A stretch of 52,052 bases of DNA from Candidatus Cloacimonadota bacterium (lineage in GTDB: Bacteria > Cloacimonadota > Cloacimonadia > Cloacimonadales > GCA-2742885). The DNA is taken from NCBI GenBank assembly GCA_002742885.1, contig PDOO01000039.1, positions 1 through 52,052 of the forward strand, in the 5' to 3' direction. Shown here in pieces: positions 29,112 to 36,202 of this stretch. The notes beneath the pieces are model-generated. The model did not search any database and was not told where the DNA came from. It saw only the letters and a program-made list of their open reading frames with translations. Position 1 is the first letter of the stretch. Each line of letters begins with the position of its first letter. A program made the translations under genes and the position numbers.

Positions 29112-31121
29112 ATGAAAAGAAAAGAAACGTATCTGTTATTTTTTATTGATATTTTCATTGTCGCATTATCATATATTTTTATGTCGTGGATTAAGAGCGA
29201 TGATTTGGCTTATCGTATTTACGGTTATAAAACCGAATTATCGGTATTTATTTTGGTTTGGCTTTTTATTTCTTCTGTTTCTTCCAAATACACTTTATAT
29301 AAATACCATTCGATAAAAAATATTTTATCTAAAGCGATTGAAATAAATTTTTCTATTGTGGCTTTGTTTACTGTTTTCTTCTTCCTTTTTAAACAATTTG
29401 ATTACTCCAGAATTTTATTTTTCGGATCTGTTTCTTTTATAACTGTTTTAGAATGCCTTGTTTTGGTCTTTTTAGGGAAAAATTATAATAAGAAAAATAA
29501 ATGTACTTTAAAGCCTGTTGCGAGAAAACAGAGATTTATGAGAAGCAGGAAAACTTTGGGATTTATGATAGTTAATATTTTTTCCTTTGTTCTGTCTTTT
29601 CTTTTGGTTGCCTGGTATAAACCGGCTACCGTAAATCGAATTATACCGCAATACAGGTCTATAATTTTTATTATGTCTCTTATTTGGGTTTTTATTTCTT
29701 TGCTGACCAAAAAATATCATCCTCTCAAGGGGGATAAGTTCGGTGAAGCGGTTCAAAAAATATTCATTGCAGATATTGTTGCCTCTGCTGTTTTTTGTAT
29801 TTTGATTTTCGGATTTAAATTATTTAATTTATCTCGACTGATTATTTTCGGTACTTCTCTTATTACTTTATTTTTGGAGTTTATTTTTGCCTTTTTTTAT
29901 ATCCTCTCCAACAGATTCAGAGCAATTGATCCGATAGATTCTCATTTTGATCTGGTAACTCATTCCGATAAATTGGAAAATATAGAAGAGGAAACGGTGA
30001 CGACTCCGGTGTATGTTCCGGACAGATATGATCCAAAATTTGAGCCTGATATAGCAGTTGAAAAATCTTTTTTGCGTACTTTGATAAATGAACAATACCA
30101 TTATCCGGATGAATTATTTGAATTCATATATGAATTTATTGCCATTGAAAATATCGGGAAATCAAAATGTTTTGTGTTTAATACCGGAAATTCCGATAAC
30201 CTTGATAACTTTGAATCGTCTCAATTGGAAATGTTTTTGAATTTACGCAAGTTAAATGATATGAGACGCATTAATAAATATCTTATAAAATTAAACGAGA
30301 TTCTGACGCCGGGCGGTATCTTTGTGGGTTGCGGAGAAACCATTGCTCAGAGAAGATCCCGTTTCGTTAAAAAATCGTTTAAGTTATTAGGTGAAACTTT
30401 TTACGTTTTTGATTTTATTTTTAATCGCGTATTTCCTAAATTAAATTTATTGCAGGGTTTATATTTTTCAGTTACCAAAGGCATGAATCGTCCTTTGTCA
30501 AAATGTGAGATTTTGGGAAGACTTTATTTTTGCGGGTTTGAAGTAATCGAGACAAAAGAGTTGAACGGTAAATTATTTTTCTTGGCAAAAAAATCCGGCA
30601 AACCGTCTCAAGACACCAATCCTTCTTACGGACCTTTGTTTAAAATGAAAAGGCACGGAAAAGGCGGTAAAATTATTCATGTTTACAAGTTTCGCACCAT
30701 GCATCCTTATGCTGAATATCTTCAACATTATATGGTGGAGAGATACGGTTACGGAAATAAAGGAAAGATTGAAAATGATTTTCGAACCGCAGAATGGGGA
30801 AGATGGATGCGCCGTTTATGGTTGGATGAATTACCTCAATTAATTAACTTTCTGAAAGGAGATATGGCGCTTGTCGGAGTAAGACCTTTGAGTAACAGGT
30901 TTTTGAATGAATATCCCCCGGAACTTAAAGAAAAAAGATTTAAATATAAACCGGGTTGCATTCCTCCTTACGTGGCTTTAAAAATGCAAGAAGTTGAAGA
31001 ATATCTGGAATCTGAGCGCATTTATCTGAATATGAAAGAAGAGCATCCTGTTTGGACTGATATAAAGATTTTCTTCATTGCAGTTTACAATATTTTGGCA
31101 AATAAAATACGAAGCGAGTAG
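29112..31121 (+). CDS. polyprenyl-phosphate sugar-1-phosphate transferase with duplicated membrane module and methyltransferase-like middle domain
   Basis: The 669-residue protein has an unusual layout. Residues 1-125 and about 143-270 are two copies of a four-helix membrane module (FKQFDYSRILFFG in the first, FKLFNLSRLIIFG in the second). Residues about 310-500 resemble the back half of a class I methyltransferase (LIKLNEILTPGGIFVG), but no clear SAM-binding glycine loop is seen. The last 160 residues are a bacterial sugar transferase domain, with VYKFRTMHPYAEY and LWLDELPQLINFLKGDMALVGVRPLS containing the catalytic Asp-Glu pair. This enzyme class starts repeat-unit synthesis on undecaprenyl phosphate. 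The re-entrant helix that normally precedes the catalytic domain is not apparent. Confidence 0.8.
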   Translation: MKRKETYLLFFIDIFIVALSYIFMSWIKSDDLAYRIYGYKTELSVFILVWLFISSVSSKYTLYKYHSIKNILSKAIEINFSIVALFTVFFFLFKQFDYSRILFFGSVSFITVLECLVLVFLGKNYNKKNKCTLKPVARKQRFMRSRKTLGFMIVNIFSFVLSFLLVAWYKPATVNRIIPQYRSIIFIMSLIWVFISLLTKKYHPLKGDKFGEAVQKIFIADIVASAVFCILIFGFKLFNLSRLIIFGTSLITLFLEFIFAFFYILSNRFRAIDPIDSHFDLVTHSDKLENIEEETVTTPVYVPDRYDPKFEPDIAVEKSFLRTLINEQYHYPDELFEFIYEFIAIENIGKSKCFVFNTGNSDNLDNFESSQLEMFLNLRKLNDMRRINKYLIKLNEILTPGGIFVGCGETIAQRRSRFVKKSFKLLGETFYVFDFIFNRVFPKLNLLQGLYFSVTKGMNRPLSKCEILGRLYFCGFEVIETKELNGKLFFLAKKSGKPSQDTNPSYGPLFKMKRHGKGGKIIHVYKFRTMHPYAEYLQHYMVERYGYGNKGKIENDFRTAEWGRWMRRLWLDELPQLINFLKGDMALVGVRPLSNRFLNEYPPELKEKRFKYKPGCIPPYVALKMQEVEEYLESERIYLNMKEEHPVWTDIKIFFIAVYNILANKIRSE

Positions 31122-31737: not shown

Positions 31738-32811
31738 ATGAATAAAAAAGTTAATTTTGCATTAGTAGGTTGCGGAAGAATTTCCAAAAAACATGCGGAA
31801 ACTATAAAATTTTCCTTGAGAGACAGGGCAAATCTTATCGCTGTTTGCGATGTTCAATACGACAGAGCCGAAAAAGTCGGTAAGGAATACGATGTTCCTT
31901 ATTACAATAATTATGATGAAATGTTAAAAAATCATCCCGAAACGGATGTTGTGAATATTTTGTCTGAAAGCGGTAAACATGCAGAACACACGATTGATAT
32001 AGTTAAAAAATATAAAAAACATATTGTTACCGAGAAGCCTATGGCATTAACTCTTAAGGATGCCGATGAAATGATCAGAGCTTGTGATGAAGAGGGGGTA
32101 AAGCTTTTTGTCGTGAAGCAAAATCGTTACAATCTTCCTGTTATGAAAACCAGAGAAGCATTGGAAGACGGACGTTTCGGAAAAATGGTAATGGGAACGG
32201 TTCGGGTGCGCTGGTGCCGTCCTCAACATTATTATGATCAGGATGCTTGGCGCGGTACTTGGGCTATGGACGGGGGAGTTTTTACTAATCAGGCATCGCA
32301 TCACATTGATCTTTTGGAGTGGATGTTGGGAGAACCTGTTTCCGTTTTTGCCAAATCCAGAACCGCATTGGTTGATATTGAAACAGAAGATACCGGAGTT
32401 GCCGTTATTCAATTTGCCGGCGGAGCAATAGGCGTGGTGGAAGCTACAACTGCAACTCGTCCCAAAGATTTGGAAGGATCTTTATCTTTATTGGGTGAAA
32501 AAGGAACTGTGGAAATAAGCGGATTTGCCGTAAACGAGATGAAAATTTGGAATTTTACCGATGCTAATGACGATAAAGAAGAAGTTTTAAGTCAGTATAA
32601 AGAAAACCCGTCCAATGTTTACGGATTCGGCCATGTTCGTTATTTGGAAAATGTAATAGATTCTTTGGTTGAGAATAAAAAAGCTCTTGTCGGCGGTTTG
32701 GAGGGAAGAAAGTCTTTGGAATTAATCAGCGCCATTTATGAATCTATTGAGACCGGCAAAGAAGTTTTCTTAAGATTCCAACCTCAAAAATGTAAACTCG
32801 GTCGTAAATAA
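31738..32811 (+). CDS. UDP-N-acetyl-2-amino-2-deoxyglucuronate 3-dehydrogenase (WbpB/WlbA-like, Gfo/Idh/MocA)
   Basis: This 357-residue NAD-dependent oxidoreductase shows the N-terminal loop FALVGCGRISKKHAE, the VTEKPMALTLKDAD motif (near residue 97) with the catalytic Lys-Pro, and VRVRWCRPQHYYDQDAWRGTW followed by NQASHHIDLLEWM near 160-200. The last two match WlbA-type enzymes that oxidise C3 of UDP-GlcNAc-uronic acid. It is followed by a WbpD-like acetyltransferase and a WbpE-like aminotransferase, the next two steps toward UDP-2,3-diacetamido-2,3-dideoxy-glucuronic acid. WbpA, which makes the uronic acid substrate, is not in this window. An AAAGGAG ribosome site precedes the ATG. Confidence 0.88.
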   Translation: MNKKVNFALVGCGRISKKHAETIKFSLRDRANLIAVCDVQYDRAEKVGKEYDVPYYNNYDEMLKNHPETDVVNILSESGKHAEHTIDIVKKYKKHIVTEKPMALTLKDADEMIRACDEEGVKLFVVKQNRYNLPVMKTREALEDGRFGKMVMGTVRVRWCRPQHYYDQDAWRGTWAMDGGVFTNQASHHIDLLEWMLGEPVSVFAKSRTALVDIETEDTGVAVIQFAGGAIGVVEATTATRPKDLEGSLSLLGEKGTVEISGFAVNEMKIWNFTDANDDKEEVLSQYKENPSNVYGFGHVRYLENVIDSLVENKKALVGGLEGRKSLELISAIYESIETGKEVFLRFQPQKCKLGRK

Positions 32812-32823
32812 GGTTTTAAATAT

Positions 32824-33279
32824 ATGAGAAAATTACAAGTCGGAATAAAAGATGTTGCGTTTGGAGAAAACGTAACTGTTGTTGAACCCGTAAATTTATA
32901 CGGATGCCGAATAGGCGACAATAGTTTTGTGGGACCTTTTGTCGAAATACAGCGTAACGTCAATATCGGTAAAAGATGCAAAGTGCAGTCGCATTCTTTT
33001 ATTTGCGAATTGGTTGATATCGGAGACGATTGTTTTATCGGACACGGCGTAATGTTTATAAACGATTTGTTCAGCGACGGGGGACCTGCCGGCGGAGATC
33101 AATCAAAATGGAAATCGACTAAAATAGGAAATCGTGTTTCAATAGGATCCAATGCAACGGTCTTACCGGTTGAAATTTGCGATAATGTTGTTATAGGAGC
33201 CGGCTCAACGGTTACTAAATCTATCACTGAACCGGGAATTTATGCCGGAAATCCGGCTCGCAAGATAAGGAGTTTATAA
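32824..33279 (+). CDS. WbpD-like UDP-3-amino-uronate N-acetyltransferase
   Basis: This 151-residue hexapeptide-repeat acetyltransferase has the WbpD/WlbB pattern: VNLYGCRIGDNSFVGPFVEIQ, then CKVQSHSFICELVDIGDDCFIGHGVMFIND, and the end VVIGAGSTVTKSITEPGIYAGNPARKI. It would acetylate the 3-amino group after the aminotransferase has acted. It is shorter than the roughly 190 residues of Pseudomonas WbpD, lacking the C-terminal extension. Gene order places it between the dehydrogenase and aminotransferase genes, as in known wbp/wlb clusters, but here a small antitoxin-like gene has been inserted after it. Confidence 0.85.
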   Translation: MRKLQVGIKDVAFGENVTVVEPVNLYGCRIGDNSFVGPFVEIQRNVNIGKRCKVQSHSFICELVDIGDDCFIGHGVMFINDLFSDGGPAGGDQSKWKSTKIGNRVSIGSNATVLPVEICDNVVIGAGSTVTKSITEPGIYAGNPARKIRSL

Positions 33280-33289
33280 AGAGGTAATT

Positions 33290-33580
33290 ATGCAGGTAAA
33301 AGCGGTTAAAACGGATGACGGTATTTTGATCCCTCAATTCAAAAATTTTGATGACATTAAGAATAATGTTGTCGAAGTTGATATAAATTTGTCAAGAAAT
33401 GAAGCGAGAAGTTTGGATTATAAAGAGTTGAGAGGAGACATCGTCTTGGAACGATTTCAAGAAAAAGATAAAAGACGCATTGCTTATTGCTCATCCGATT
33501 ACGAATCTTATTTATTAAAAAATGAAAAAATAAAATCGTTCAGAGAGCTTCTTCTTGCGGTTCATAAAGGAGATTTTTAA
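33290..33580 (+). CDS. small antitoxin-like protein upstream of PIN-aminotransferase fusion
   Basis: This 96-residue protein is of no firmly recognised family. The first 30 residues (KAVKTDDGILIPQFKNFDD) resemble the short beta-strand start of antitoxins paired with PIN toxins. The remainder is charged and helical (NEARSLDYKELRGD, SFRELLLAVHKGDF). A good ribosome site (AGAGG) precedes the ATG. Its TAA shares a base with the ATG of the next gene (TAATG), the coupling typical of antitoxin-toxin pairs, and the next gene begins with a PIN domain. The antitoxin role is inferred from position and size, not proven by sequence. Confidence 0.6.
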   Translation: MQVKAVKTDDGILIPQFKNFDDIKNNVVEVDINLSRNEARSLDYKELRGDIVLERFQEKDKRRIAYCSSDYESYLLKNEKIKSFRELLLAVHKGDF

Positions 33581-35088
33581 TGTTAAACTTAATTTTTGAC
33601 AATAATGTGATTATTGATATCATAACTGAACGTTTCGGGAAAAATTCTCCGGAAAGTGATCTTTTTGTTAAAGCTGTTTTGAATAAAAAGGCTTATCTCA
33701 GTGTCTCTCAGATACATAATTTAAGATATGTCATAAAAAAGAATTTTCCCGAATATTACCAAGATTTTCTGGCTCTTGAAGCAAAGTTGAAATTAGTAAA
33801 AACACCTTCTTACGCTGATTTAAATTCTTCTTTGGCAAAAGCCGATATTGAAGATTATTTGATTGAGTTGTCGGCTAAAACCTTAAAAGGAAAAGTTATA
33901 ACAAGAGATAACAGGTTTTTGACTTTATCTGATTGCGCTGCTACCGCCGAAAACTATATTGAAGAGCTTAAAAAAGAAAAAAATACAATTCCTTTTCTTG
34001 ATTTGAAAGTTCAATATTGTTCTTTTAACGCTGAAATGGATAAAGCAATAGAAAATATTATAAGCAACACCGCTTTTATCGGCGGAGAAGCTGTGAATAA
34101 TTTTAATTCTGAGTTTGCTGAATTTGTAGGTACAAAATATGCCGTAGGAGTCGGAAACGGAACGGATGCTTTAATTATAGCCCTAAAAGCTTTGGGAATT
34201 TCCGAAGGTGATGAGGTTATTGTTCCCGCCAACAGTTTTATTGCTACTTCGGAGGCGGTAACTGCTGCCGGAGGCAAGGTTGTTTTTGTTGATTGTCATC
34301 CCGATTACTATACCTTGGATGTTGAAAAGATTGAAGAGAAAATAACCGATAGGACAAAAGTTATTATTCCCGTTCATTTGTACGGTCAGCCTGCTGAAAC
34401 GGATAAGGTTACGGAGCTTGCGAAAAAATATAATTTAAAGATTTTGGAAGATTGCGCTCAGGCTCACGGAGCGGAATATAAAGGAAGATCAGTAGGAACG
34501 ATCGGTGATATTGCGACTTTCAGTTTTTATCCCGGTAAAAACCTCGGAGCTTACGGAGACGGGGGAGCAATTACTACAAATGATCCCGAACTTTTCAAAT
34601 TGAGTAAGATGTATGCCAATCACGGAAGGATTGATAAATACAATCATGAATTTGAAGGCGTTAATTCAAGATTGGACGGAATTCAGGCAGCTGTTTTAAA
34701 TGTTAAGCTTAAAAAAATAAGAGAGTGGAATTCTTTGAGAAACAAAGCTGCAAAATATTATACCGAAAAATTGAAAAACATAAAAGATTTGGCGCTTCCT
34801 GTCGAACTTGCCGGTACCTTCCCCGTATATCATCTTTTTGTTGTAAGGGCTGAAAAAAGAGAAGCTCTTCAAGCTTTCTTAAAAGAAAACGGTGTTTCTA
34901 CCGGAGTTCATTATCCTATCGGCTTGCCTTTTCTGAAAGCTTACGACAGCATGAATCATAAAAGCGAAGATTTTCCGGTAACTTATAATTATCAGAACAA
35001 ACTTCTTTCTTTGCCGATTTTTCCTGAAATTACCGAAGAGATGATGGATCATGTCGCAGAAAAGATAGAAGAGTTTTACCGTCTCTGA
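33580..35088 (+). CDS. PIN domain fused to WbpE-like UDP-sugar aminotransferase
   Basis: This 502-residue protein has two parts. Residues 1-130 form a complete PIN (VapC-like, PIN_3-type) domain, with NLIFDNNVIIDIITER (Asp7), the acidic helix ADIEDYLIELSAK (Asp89, Glu91, Asp92) and GKVITRDNRFL (Asp110). The second conserved acidic position appears to be His46/Asn47, so activity may be reduced. After a short charged linker, residues 137-502 are a full DegT/DnrJ aminotransferase from IPFLDLKVQY on. It has GVGNGTDALIIALKA, EDCAQAHGAEYKG and FYPGKNLGAYGDGGA, with the PLP lysine at K320. The neighbours identify it as WbpE-like. No good internal start exists at the junction, so the fusion is real unless there is a sequencing error. 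Confidence 0.88.
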   Translation: MLNLIFDNNVIIDIITERFGKNSPESDLFVKAVLNKKAYLSVSQIHNLRYVIKKNFPEYYQDFLALEAKLKLVKTPSYADLNSSLAKADIEDYLIELSAKTLKGKVITRDNRFLTLSDCAATAENYIEELKKEKNTIPFLDLKVQYCSFNAEMDKAIENIISNTAFIGGEAVNNFNSEFAEFVGTKYAVGVGNGTDALIIALKALGISEGDEVIVPANSFIATSEAVTAAGGKVVFVDCHPDYYTLDVEKIEEKITDRTKVIIPVHLYGQPAETDKVTELAKKYNLKILEDCAQAHGAEYKGRSVGTIGDIATFSFYPGKNLGAYGDGGAITTNDPELFKLSKMYANHGRIDKYNHEFEGVNSRLDGIQAAVLNVKLKKIREWNSLRNKAAKYYTEKLKNIKDLALPVELAGTFPVYHLFVVRAEKREALQAFLKENGVSTGVHYPIGLPFLKAYDSMNHKSEDFPVTYNYQNKLLSLPIFPEITEEMMDHVAEKIEEFYRL

Positions 35089-35143: not shown

Positions 35144-36202
35144 ATGAAAATACTCATTACCGGGGCTGCCGGTTTTATCGGTTTTCATTTAGCGCAATTA
35201 TTGAAAGACGATAAAAATTATGAAATATTCGGACTTGATATCGTAAATGATTATTATGATTTAAGAATTAAATACGGACGTTTGGAAGAATTGGGTTTTC
35301 CTATTCAAAATATAAGGAAAGATGAGGCGTTGGTAAGTTCTAAATATGAAAATCTTAAATTTATAAAAACCGATATTTCCGAACAGCAAAAAGTATATGA
35401 GTTGTTTGAAAAAGAAAAATTTGATGTTGTCGTTAATCTGGCGGCTCAGGCGGGCGTTCGATACAGTATAACCAATCCCGATGCTTATTTGGAATCAAAT
35501 GTTATAGGATTTTATAATATATTGGAAGCAAGCAGACATAATAATGTTAAGCATTTGTTGTATGCCAGCAGTTCCAGCGTTTACGGTTGGAATGAGTCTA
35601 TGCCTTTTTCGACAAGAGATAATGTGGATCATCCCATAAGTCTTTATGCTGCGACCAAGAAATCAAATGAATTATTGGCTCACACATACAGCGCCTTGTA
35701 TAATATACCTACTACGGGACTTAGATTCTTTACGGTTTACGGACCGTGGGGAAGACCTGATATGGCATTGTTTCTTTTTGCAGAGAGAATTTGGAAAGGA
35801 GAACCTATAGATGTTTACAATTACGGAAAAATGAAACGTGATTTTACTTATGTTGACGATATTATTAAGGGTATTCAATTGATGATTTCCAAGCCTCCCA
35901 AACCTAATCCCTATTGGACGGGGATGAATCCTGATCCGGGATCTTCAAAAGCGCCTTACAGAATTTATAATATCGGAAACAATTCACCCGTTTTATTGAT
36001 GGATTTCATCCATGAAATCGAAAATGCTTTTGGGAAAAAGGCAGAAATGAATATGTTGCCTATGCAACCCGGAGATGTTTTGGCTTCTCATGCCGATGTA
36101 AGCGATTTAATTGCTGATTTCGGTTATAAACCGCAAACGCCTATTGGAGAAGGTGTGAAGAAATTTGCCTCTTGGTATCTGGAATTTTACAAATACAAAT
36201 AA
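35144..36202 (+). CDS. UDP-glucuronate 4-epimerase-like SDR enzyme
   Basis: The 352-residue extended SDR has GAAGFIGFHLAQLL (NAD loop), LAAQAGVRYSITNPDAYLESN near residue 105, ASSSSVYG, the YAATK catalytic motif near 170, and RFFTVYGPWGRPDMALFLF near 198. These match UDP-glucuronate/UDP-galacturonate 4-epimerases (CapI/LpsL/GAE). As the last gene of the wbp-like operon, it could act on UDP-glucuronate or on the diacetamido-uronate made by the upstream genes to yield a galacto isomer. It is followed by an intrinsic terminator. Confidence 0.9.
   Translation: MKILITGAAGFIGFHLAQLLKDDKNYEIFGLDIVNDYYDLRIKYGRLEELGFPIQNIRKDEALVSSKYENLKFIKTDISEQQKVYELFEKEKFDVVVNLAAQAGVRYSITNPDAYLESNVIGFYNILEASRHNNVKHLLYASSSSVYGWNESMPFSTRDNVDHPISLYAATKKSNELLAHTYSALYNIPTTGLRFFTVYGPWGRPDMALFLFAERIWKGEPIDVYNYGKMKRDFTYVDDIIKGIQLMISKPPKPNPYWTGMNPDPGSSKAPYRIYNIGNNSPVLLMDFIHEIENAFGKKAEMNMLPMQPGDVLASHADVSDLIADFGYKPQTPIGEGVKKFASWYLEFYKYK

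What the first reader, a model, noticed from the sequence alone, without database searches (positions are those of the whole stretch)
33580..35088. PIN (VapC-type) toxin domain fused in frame to a WbpE-like sugar aminotransferase
The sequence shows a full PIN domain (Asp7, DIED at 89-92, ITRD at 107-110, and the usual C-terminal end ENYIEEL). A six-residue linker then leads into a complete aminotransferase beginning at its normal first residues (IPFLDLK), with PLP lysine K320. No in-frame ATG, GTG or plausibly placed TTG lies at the junction, so the aminotransferase cannot easily be made alone. PIN domains are RNases, usually toxins, and I know of no described case in which one is joined to a nucleotide-sugar enzyme. 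Possible meanings are a toxin captured by a biosynthetic operon, an addiction device that punishes loss of the O-antigen locus, or an RNase that tunes the operon's own mRNA. The second acidic PIN position looks replaced (His46/Asn47), so activity may be weak or absent.
Basis: partly seen in the sequence, partly recalled or inferred. Interest (0 to 1): 0.88.

Follow-up and report, generated by a model that had tools for sequence, protein, structure and literature searches.

The report
Toxin cassette locked onto sugar enzyme
A bacterial gene pair that looks like a toxin and its antidote is welded in one reading frame to an enzyme that makes surface sugars, and related bacteria carry the same welded toxin on several different sugar enzymes, as if it were a swappable lock on the sugar-coat genes.

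Summary
The fusion is real and recurs. The window ORF (33580-35088, 502 aa) is a PIN domain joined in frame to a DegT sugar aminotransferase (AT). I found 21 such copies in 20 genomes: Cloacimonadota, Campylobacterota, one Bacteroidales bin and Thermodesulfobacteriota. The 21 fused PINs form one clade (100/100) apart from 24 standalone PIN_3/VapC-type toxins, while 20 full ATs are interleaved with 25 unfused ATs (at least 6 changes). In 17 of 21 a small ORF (68-129 aa; window 33290-33580) lies directly upstream. It tracks the PIN, not the AT (partial Mantel r 0.77, p 0.0001; reverse 0.23, p 0.016). Cassettes are exchanged, with breakpoints at the PIN/AT junction: L077 and L074 share 88% AT but 30% PIN. 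Two loci keep a second small ORF of the other cassette's type. Empty sites exist. Best reading: a VapBC-like toxin-antitoxin cassette whose toxin is translationally locked to an O-antigen-type aminotransferase, plausibly an addiction or exclusion device for the sugar locus. Toxicity, neutralisation and function are inferred. Against it: 7 of 21 PINs lost a catalytic Asp yet stay full length, and the small ORFs match no known antitoxin family.

The parts
33290..33580 (+). small ORF, 96 aa, antitoxin-like partner; its stop overlaps the fusion's ATG by 1 nt
   Evidence: homologue in L005/L026 (47% identity, E 4.6e-24); weaker likeness to the L027 ORF in an alignment; small ORFs co-vary with PIN; no Pfam or NCBIfam match
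33580..33969 (+). PIN domain (residues 1-130)
33598..33600 (+). Asp7, first acid of the PIN site
   Evidence: D in 21 of 21 fused and 24 of 24 standalone
33799..33813 (+). KTPSY motif (74-78), hallmark of the fused clade
   Evidence: K, T and P in 21 of 21 fused; no T at 75 or P at 76 in the 24 standalone
33853..33855 (+). Asp92, third acid (DIED)
   Evidence: D in 14 of 21 fused, 24 of 24 standalone
33907..33909 (+). Asp110, fourth acid (ITRD)
   Evidence: D 17, N 4 of 21 fused; D 10, N 14 of 24 standalone
33970..33987 (+). linker KKEKNT (131-136) between the domains
33988..35088 (+). DegT-family PLP aminotransferase (residues 137-502 and stop)
34537..34539 (+). Lys320, PLP lysine by position (motif recalled)
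   Evidence: invariant in the 3 rows of A1 and the 6 rows of A5
31738..32811 (+). Gfo/Idh/MocA oxidoreductase (WbpB-like position)
32824..33279 (+). hexapeptide acetyltransferase (WbpD-like position), directly before the cassette
35144..36202 (+). NAD-dependent sugar epimerase after the fusion
29112..31121 (+). sugar transferase (Bac_transf), part of the surface-sugar locus

Best explanation
The 96-aa ORF and the PIN domain together are a VapBC-like toxin-antitoxin cassette that sits between a sugar acetyltransferase gene and a DegT sugar aminotransferase gene. The toxin has no stop codon of its own and is read straight into the aminotransferase. Shown: one ORF; PIN homology; a single fused-PIN clade; several aminotransferase hosts; empty sites; small ORF and PIN inherited as a unit; exchange with breakpoints at the junction; no good separate start for the aminotransferase. 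Inferred: the small protein binds and silences the PIN RNase; the cell needs the aminotransferase, so it must also make the toxin, and frameshift or nonsense loss of the toxin would cost it the enzyme; a cell that loses or swaps the sugar locus loses the antitoxin and is poisoned by residual fusion protein. The cassette would thus hold the O-antigen-type locus in place and exclude others, and replacing one cassette by another is tolerated when the old antitoxin is kept.
For: Recurrence as 21 copies in 20 genomes. Fused PINs one clade, 100/100; AT hosts need at least 6 fused/unfused changes on a tree of 45 rows. Small ORF in 17 of 21, overlapping the fusion start by 1-20 nt in 16 and 2 nt short of it in one. 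Partial Mantel over those 17: small~PIN with AT held r 0.77 p 0.0001; small~AT with PIN held r 0.23 p 0.016. L077 vs L074/76/80: AT 88-90%, PIN 29-30%; L027 vs L072: AT 82%, PIN 30% (by local alignment 82% and 40%). DNA likeness of L027 and L072 covers the WbpB and WbpD genes, is absent over small ORF and PIN, and resumes at the junction. L077 carries an uninterrupted L074-type small ORF before its own, L076 a shorter L077-type one. PIN dN/dS 0.15-0.20 against 0.13-0.15 for AT in three close copies. Empty sites L008 and L009, L084, L085, L087. Precedent: a VapC1-eGFP C-terminal fusion stays toxic and is neutralised by VapB1 (PMC4229260, section 10).
Against: Asp92 is lost in 7 of 21 copies while the PIN stays full length and K-T-P is kept; frame-locking explains the length but not the motif. 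Two of the three copies behind the dN/dS figures are themselves altered at the site (L076 at 92, L080 at 110). The link between an intact Asp92 and the small ORF (14 of 17 against 0 of 4, Fisher p 0.006) rests on only 2 changes of small-ORF state on the PIN tree and does not survive correction for kinship; three of the four ORF-less loci lie in one class of 6 genomes. The small ORFs show no likeness above shuffled controls to 20 standalone PINs' partners; 17 of 17 match no Pfam family and one gives a stray weak NCBIfam match; PADLOC was tried with 3 of 17, none matched; the 3 tried in the plasmid collection found nothing. No structure model (switched off) and no experiment.
Confidence: 0.58

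Rival explanations
1. Domesticated PIN: the domain is a specialised RNase or regulator of its own operon's mRNA or of sugar flux, with the small protein as its control subunit; no killing is involved.
For: On a DegT-type sugar aminotransferase in 21 of 21 copies; by my reading of the ORFs 11 of 21 stand beside Gfo/Idh oxidoreductase and/or hexapeptide acetyltransferase genes and L063, L066, L074 and L076 beside FdtA-type cupin genes (Pfam run on neighbours only in the window and L027).
Against: Repeated cassette exchange and small ORFs of the other cassette's type left without their PIN look like toxin-antitoxin turnover; the state of Asp92 changes 5 times on the PIN tree without loss of the gene.
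Confidence: 0.2
2. Scaffold: the PIN fold no longer needs catalysis and serves as a docking or oligomerisation module for the aminotransferase, through the KTPSY motif.
For: K-T-P in 21 of 21 fused and not in the 24 standalone; kept in the 7 copies that lost Asp92; L030 and L067 have neither a small ORF nor Asp92 but keep the domain.
Against: 14 of 21 keep D7, D89, E91 and D92; the small ORF is co-inherited with the PIN rather than the AT.
Confidence: 0.13
3. Phage-defence guard: a phage that shuts down synthesis or attacks the surface-sugar pathway lets the antitoxin decay and frees the fused RNase.
For: O-antigen-type locus; toxin-antitoxin logic; two PDDEXK_3 nuclease-family genes also sit in the L026 locus.
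Against: No PADLOC match for 3 PINs and 3 small ORFs; no relative of the PIN found in viral contigs or, for two PINs, in phages; nothing here tests it directly.
Confidence: 0.07
4. Assembly or sequencing artefact, or a one-off read-through.
For: Many relatives sit on short metagenome contigs.
Against: 21 copies in 20 genomes, one PIN clade, no stop inside the matched stretches.
Confidence: 0.02

Closest known systems
VapBC type II toxin-antitoxin systems (PIN toxin, Pfam PIN_3/PIN)
   Same: PIN with D7, D89-x-E91-D92, T-x-D110; small ORF directly upstream, overlapping or nearly so; 20 of the 24 standalone relatives in the tree also have such an ORF
   Different: toxin is not a free small protein but the N-terminus of a metabolic enzyme; KTPSY motif; partner ORF matches no curated antitoxin family
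DegT/DnrJ/EryC1/StrS sugar aminotransferases (WbpE and FdtB/QdtB kinds; function names recalled)
   Same: complete fold, PLP lysine, operon context with oxidoreductase and acetyltransferase or FdtA-type cupin genes
   Different: start codon replaced by the toxin domain; unfused relatives such as L008 and L009 start at the equivalent of residue 137
VapC1-eGFP laboratory fusion (PMC4229260, section 10)
   Same: a C-terminal fusion on a VapC toxin stays toxic and is still neutralised by VapB1
   Different: artificial; eGFP is an unrelated reporter
Orphan antitoxins and anti-addiction (PMC7354431, passages)
   Same: antitoxin genes kept without their toxin, proposed to protect against a rival toxin
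   Different: here they would lie in the same locus, next to a different fused toxin

Membership tests
PIN domain superfamily (PIN_3/VapC type) | sequence-profile homology | tested here: met
   hhalign of 14 fused vs 16 standalone PINs: 99.0%, E 2.3e-18; the standalone 16 of 16 match PIN_3 and PIN at E 0.01 or better. The window alone is below the Pfam cut-offs
PIN domain superfamily (PIN_3/VapC type) | conserved acidic active site | tested here: met
   window D7, D92, D110 present; the second acid (position 47 by alignment) is N, a position variable in standalone relatives too; 7 of 21 fused copies lack D92
VapBC toxin-antitoxin system | small partner ORF directly upstream of the toxin | tested here: met
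   window, 1-nt overlap; 17 of 21 fused loci
VapBC toxin-antitoxin system | toxin is a free single-domain protein | tested here: not met
   fused to an aminotransferase in 21 of 21; no Shine-Dalgarno-like start near the junction
VapBC toxin-antitoxin system | antitoxin of a recognised family | tested here: not met
   17 of 17 small ORFs without a Pfam match, one weak NCBIfam match to MecA at E 0.0025; PADLOC tried with 3 of 17; no likeness to 20 standalone partners above shuffles
VapBC toxin-antitoxin system | toxicity neutralised by the partner | not testable with these tools
   needs expression tests
DegT aminotransferase | family profile over the full length | tested here: met
   PF01041 E 4.7e-115, residues 151-496
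WbpE (UDP-sugar C3 aminotransferase) | falls in the clade of the wbp-type loci | tested here: not met
   window AT groups with L005-L009, apart from the clade holding the loci L084 and L085

The most novel reading that the evidence does not exclude
A hitherto undescribed class of genetic lock: toxin-antitoxin cassettes that insert at the start codon of surface-sugar aminotransferases, turn the enzyme into the toxin's C-terminus so that the toxin cannot easily be lost, and compete with one another by replacement, each leaving its antitoxin behind. They would police which O-antigen locus a cell may carry.
Probability: 0.4. Interest if true: 0.9.

Novelty: new variant of a known kind. Interest (0 to 1): 0.82.

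Why it matters
If true, it gives a concrete way in which a chromosomal toxin becomes hard to lose: fusion to an enzyme the cell needs. It makes the old question of what chromosomal toxin-antitoxin modules are for testable at a locus where loss or swap of the cargo (serotype change) can be scored. It would also suggest why some surface-sugar loci resist replacement. Even if the PIN proves domesticated, a PIN clade found here only on sugar aminotransferases, with its own motif and a co-inherited partner, is a new domain architecture as far as my searches reach.

Tried and rejected
Artefact: rejected by recurrence. Plasmid or phage carriage: three PINs in plasmids, two in phages, one PIN profile in viral contigs and three small ORFs in plasmids: no match. 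The full 502-aa protein matches 1017 plasmid records through its AT; of the 30 listed rows none reaches left of residue 98 of the query, the other 987 were not seen. Likeness of the small ORFs to standalone PIN partners: scores no better than shuffles. An association of intact Asp92 with the small ORF looked good by Fisher (p 0.006) but not after allowing for kinship, so it is not a main argument. Direct match of the six-PIN profile to solved structures: best VapC 7by2, E 0.13; the standalone profile reaches it at 3.1e-5. The first AT tree took only 4 unfused rows because my filter was too strict; replaced. L065 (partial, contig edge) and a weak hit in G114 were left out of all counts. For L066 a 77-aa ORF does overlap the PIN start but reads like chance in G+C-rich DNA; I counted it as having no small ORF, a judgement. 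L075's AT is cut short; it was kept in the PIN counts and left out of the AT tree. The 24 standalone PINs were found with fused profiles, so they are nearest kin, not a random sample; L054, a near-copy of L053, was left out, and L037 and L039 were missed by my filter and not examined. Four of the 24 (L035, L048, L051, L055) showed no ORF of fitting size upstream and were not's set of 20.

Full report
What is there. Window 33580-35088 is one ORF of 502 codons: a PIN domain (1-130), six linker residues (131-136) and a DegT aminotransferase from its usual first residues. A 96-aa ORF, 33290-33580, ends on the fusion's ATG with 1 nt of overlap. Before it lie an oxidoreductase (31738-32811) and a hexapeptide acetyltransferase (32824-33279), after it an epimerase. 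Of the 20 further window proteins that I scanned, several are glycosyltransferases, a sugar transferase, acyltransferases and polysaccharide-synthesis membrane proteins, so this is an O-antigen or capsule-type locus. Its genome is in the same order as G007, whose contig is titled Candidatus Cloacimonadota.

It recurs. Within the order the PIN part is found in 3 of 106 genomes, all three fused; in the phylum a three-PIN profile matched 9 of 124, of which the same 3 are fused, the rest standalone-length or, in G114, weak and not looked at. A genome-contig scan with three PINs confirmed 5 loci, 5 of 5 fused, two being the same Cloacimonadota copies; the other three are titled Campylobacteraceae, Bacteroidales and Candidatus Desulfofervidaceae. 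Profile searches around those three then gave fused genes in 5 of 397 genomes of the Campylobacteraceae bin's phylum, 1 of 393 of the Bacteroidales bin's order and 5 of 395 of the Desulfofervidaceae bin's phylum, plus one cut by a contig edge; these sets were drawn from larger groups and in many genomes only 10 candidates were scored, so the counts are lower bounds. Further searches gave 5 of 169 (two new), 5 of 170 (four new; one has two copies, one an AT cut short) and 3 of 6 (none new). In all 21 copies in 20 genomes. Several lie on short contigs of metagenome bins, and the Bacteroidales copy's AT nests among Campylobacterota ones, so that bin's label is uncertain.

The first domain is a PIN. 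Of six copies whose Pfam bits I saw, one (L028) passes the PIN cut-off; of 14 scanned, 10 match PIN and 7 PIN_3 at E 0.1 or better. Profile to profile the match is clear: 99.0%, E 2.3e-18, 131 columns. D7 is kept in 21 of 21, D89 in 19, E91 in 17, D92 in 14; position 110 is D in 17 and N in 4. N at the fourth acid is a natural variant in some VapC toxins, there together with a nearby Glu (PMC4229260, section 13). Position 47 varies in standalone relatives too. K-T-P at 74-76 is in 21 of 21 fused and in none of 24 standalone.

A unit that moves. The 21 fused PINs form one clade with 100/100 support against 24 standalone ones. The 20 full ATs do not: on a tree with 25 unfused ATs the fused label needs at least 6 changes. 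By my reading of neighbouring ORFs the contexts include wbpB-wbpD-wbpE-type sets, FdtA-type cupin sets and the window's type; three copies are elsewhere (L030 and L067 beside protease-like genes, L064 beside an epimerase-like and a methyltransferase-like gene). Gene names by function are recalled. PIN and AT identities criss-cross: L077 has the AT of L074/L076/L080 (88-90%) but a PIN 29-30% like theirs and 43-48% like those of L044, L047, L071 and L072, whose ATs are 34-37% like its own. L027 has L072's AT (82%) and a PIN 30% like it (40% by local alignment), but 46-48% like the window's and L005's, whose ATs are 39-41% like its own. DNA likeness of L027 and L072 runs through the WbpB and WbpD genes, is absent over small ORF plus PIN, and resumes within 5 bases of the junction; L074 and L077 resume within 6 bases of it (junctions). 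So the 5' cassette is exchanged while the AT stays.

The small ORF belongs to the PIN. Of 21 loci 17 have an ORF of 68-129 aa directly upstream, 16 overlapping the fusion's start by 1-20 nt and one ending 2 nt before it. Over those 17, similarity of small ORFs follows that of PINs with the AT held constant (r 0.77, p 0.0001) far more than that of ATs with the PIN held constant (r 0.23, p 0.016); without two near-copies 0.70 (p 0.0001) and 0.19 (p 0.043). In L077 an uninterrupted ORF of the L074 type (66-71% identical over 95 residues to the three copies of that type) precedes the cognate small ORF, with no PIN of that type between; in L076 a shorter L077-type ORF (79% over 73 residues) precedes its own; L074 and L080 have fragments. 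Small ORFs kept without their PIN are what toxin-antitoxin turnover would leave (compare orphan antitoxins, PMC7354431, passages read).

Empty sites. In L008 and L009 the acetyltransferase is followed after 15 and 19 bases by an AT that starts where the window's AT part starts; L007 has the same genes in another order. In plasmid records L084 and L085 (oxidoreductase, acyltransferase, AT) and L087 (FdtA-type cupin, AT) there is no cassette.

Selection and locking. In three close copies the PIN has dN/dS 0.15-0.20, the AT 0.13-0.15; two of the three are altered at an acid position. No copy has a start codon with a Shine-Dalgarno-like 4-mer from 25 codons before to 6 after the junction; 6 of 21 have no start codon there at all. 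L067 has an ATG at the junction and L077 one 3 codons after it, both without such a 4-mer. The AT therefore seems to be made chiefly as the toxin's C-terminus. All seven copies without D92 (L030, L046, L064, L066, L067, L076, L077) lost it by substitution in a full-length domain, as expected if truncating changes would cost the enzyme.

How it most likely works, and what is inferred. See Best explanation. A published precedent shows that a VapC toxin with a large C-terminal fusion stays toxic and neutralisable (PMC4229260, section 10). No call shows that this PIN cuts RNA, that the small protein is its antitoxin, or that the locus is retained. The KTPSY motif and the inactive-looking but conserved copies leave room for a structural or regulatory role.

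Is it known? In ten searches of the paper library no listed title or abstract start describes a PIN or VapC fused to a DegT or other sugar enzyme; five of the lists were capped, so further papers were not seen. Makarova 2009 (PMC2701414, passages) lists PIN neighbours, among them a class I/II aminotransferase marked as part of larger gene associations, not this. In PMC10853773 and PMC5379612 the term 'DegT' hit only an author name in the references. The library lacks most subscription papers; the PIN classification paper that I tried by a recalled DOI is not held.

Noticed in passing
L026 1304-1687 and 3167-3535: Two PDDEXK_3 (PF13366) nuclease-family genes sit within the same sugar operon, on either side of the Gfo/Idh gene, upstream of the fused gene.
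   Followed up: partly
L027 2863-3108: A gene matching 23S_rRNA_IVP (PF05635) lies between the WbpB-like and WbpD-like genes.
   Followed up: partly
L072 (reverse strand, just before the PIN/AT junction), L027: The linker DNA of L072 is a short repeat (CCTTCAACCTTCTCC kind) that also occurs elsewhere in the locus (25 of 30 bases on the other strand; best of 40 control pieces 20), and like pieces lie inside the AT and WbpD genes of L027. In nine other copies tested the linker was not above its controls. Such repeats could help join toxin and enzyme.
   Followed up: partly
L075, reverse strand: The fused gene's aminotransferase part ends early (301-codon frame) and another ORF overlaps the end, without a Pfam match; a separate 146-aa ORF that reads like another PIN protein lies upstream. 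Described only.
   Followed up: partly
L074 and L080 (one genome, G1390): Two near-identical fused genes (PIN 93%, AT 92%) at two places in one genome, one with D110 and one with N110.
   Followed up: no
L030 7896-9464 and L067 1486-3048: Fused genes without small ORF, with lost acids, standing beside rhomboid-like and serine-protease-like genes (by reading) rather than sugar genes.
   Followed up: partly
G000:C50:103433-104113 (L004): A DegT-like stretch in a 755-codon frame with one stop inside, in the window's own genome; a 709-codon frame of this kind is in G054.
   Followed up: no
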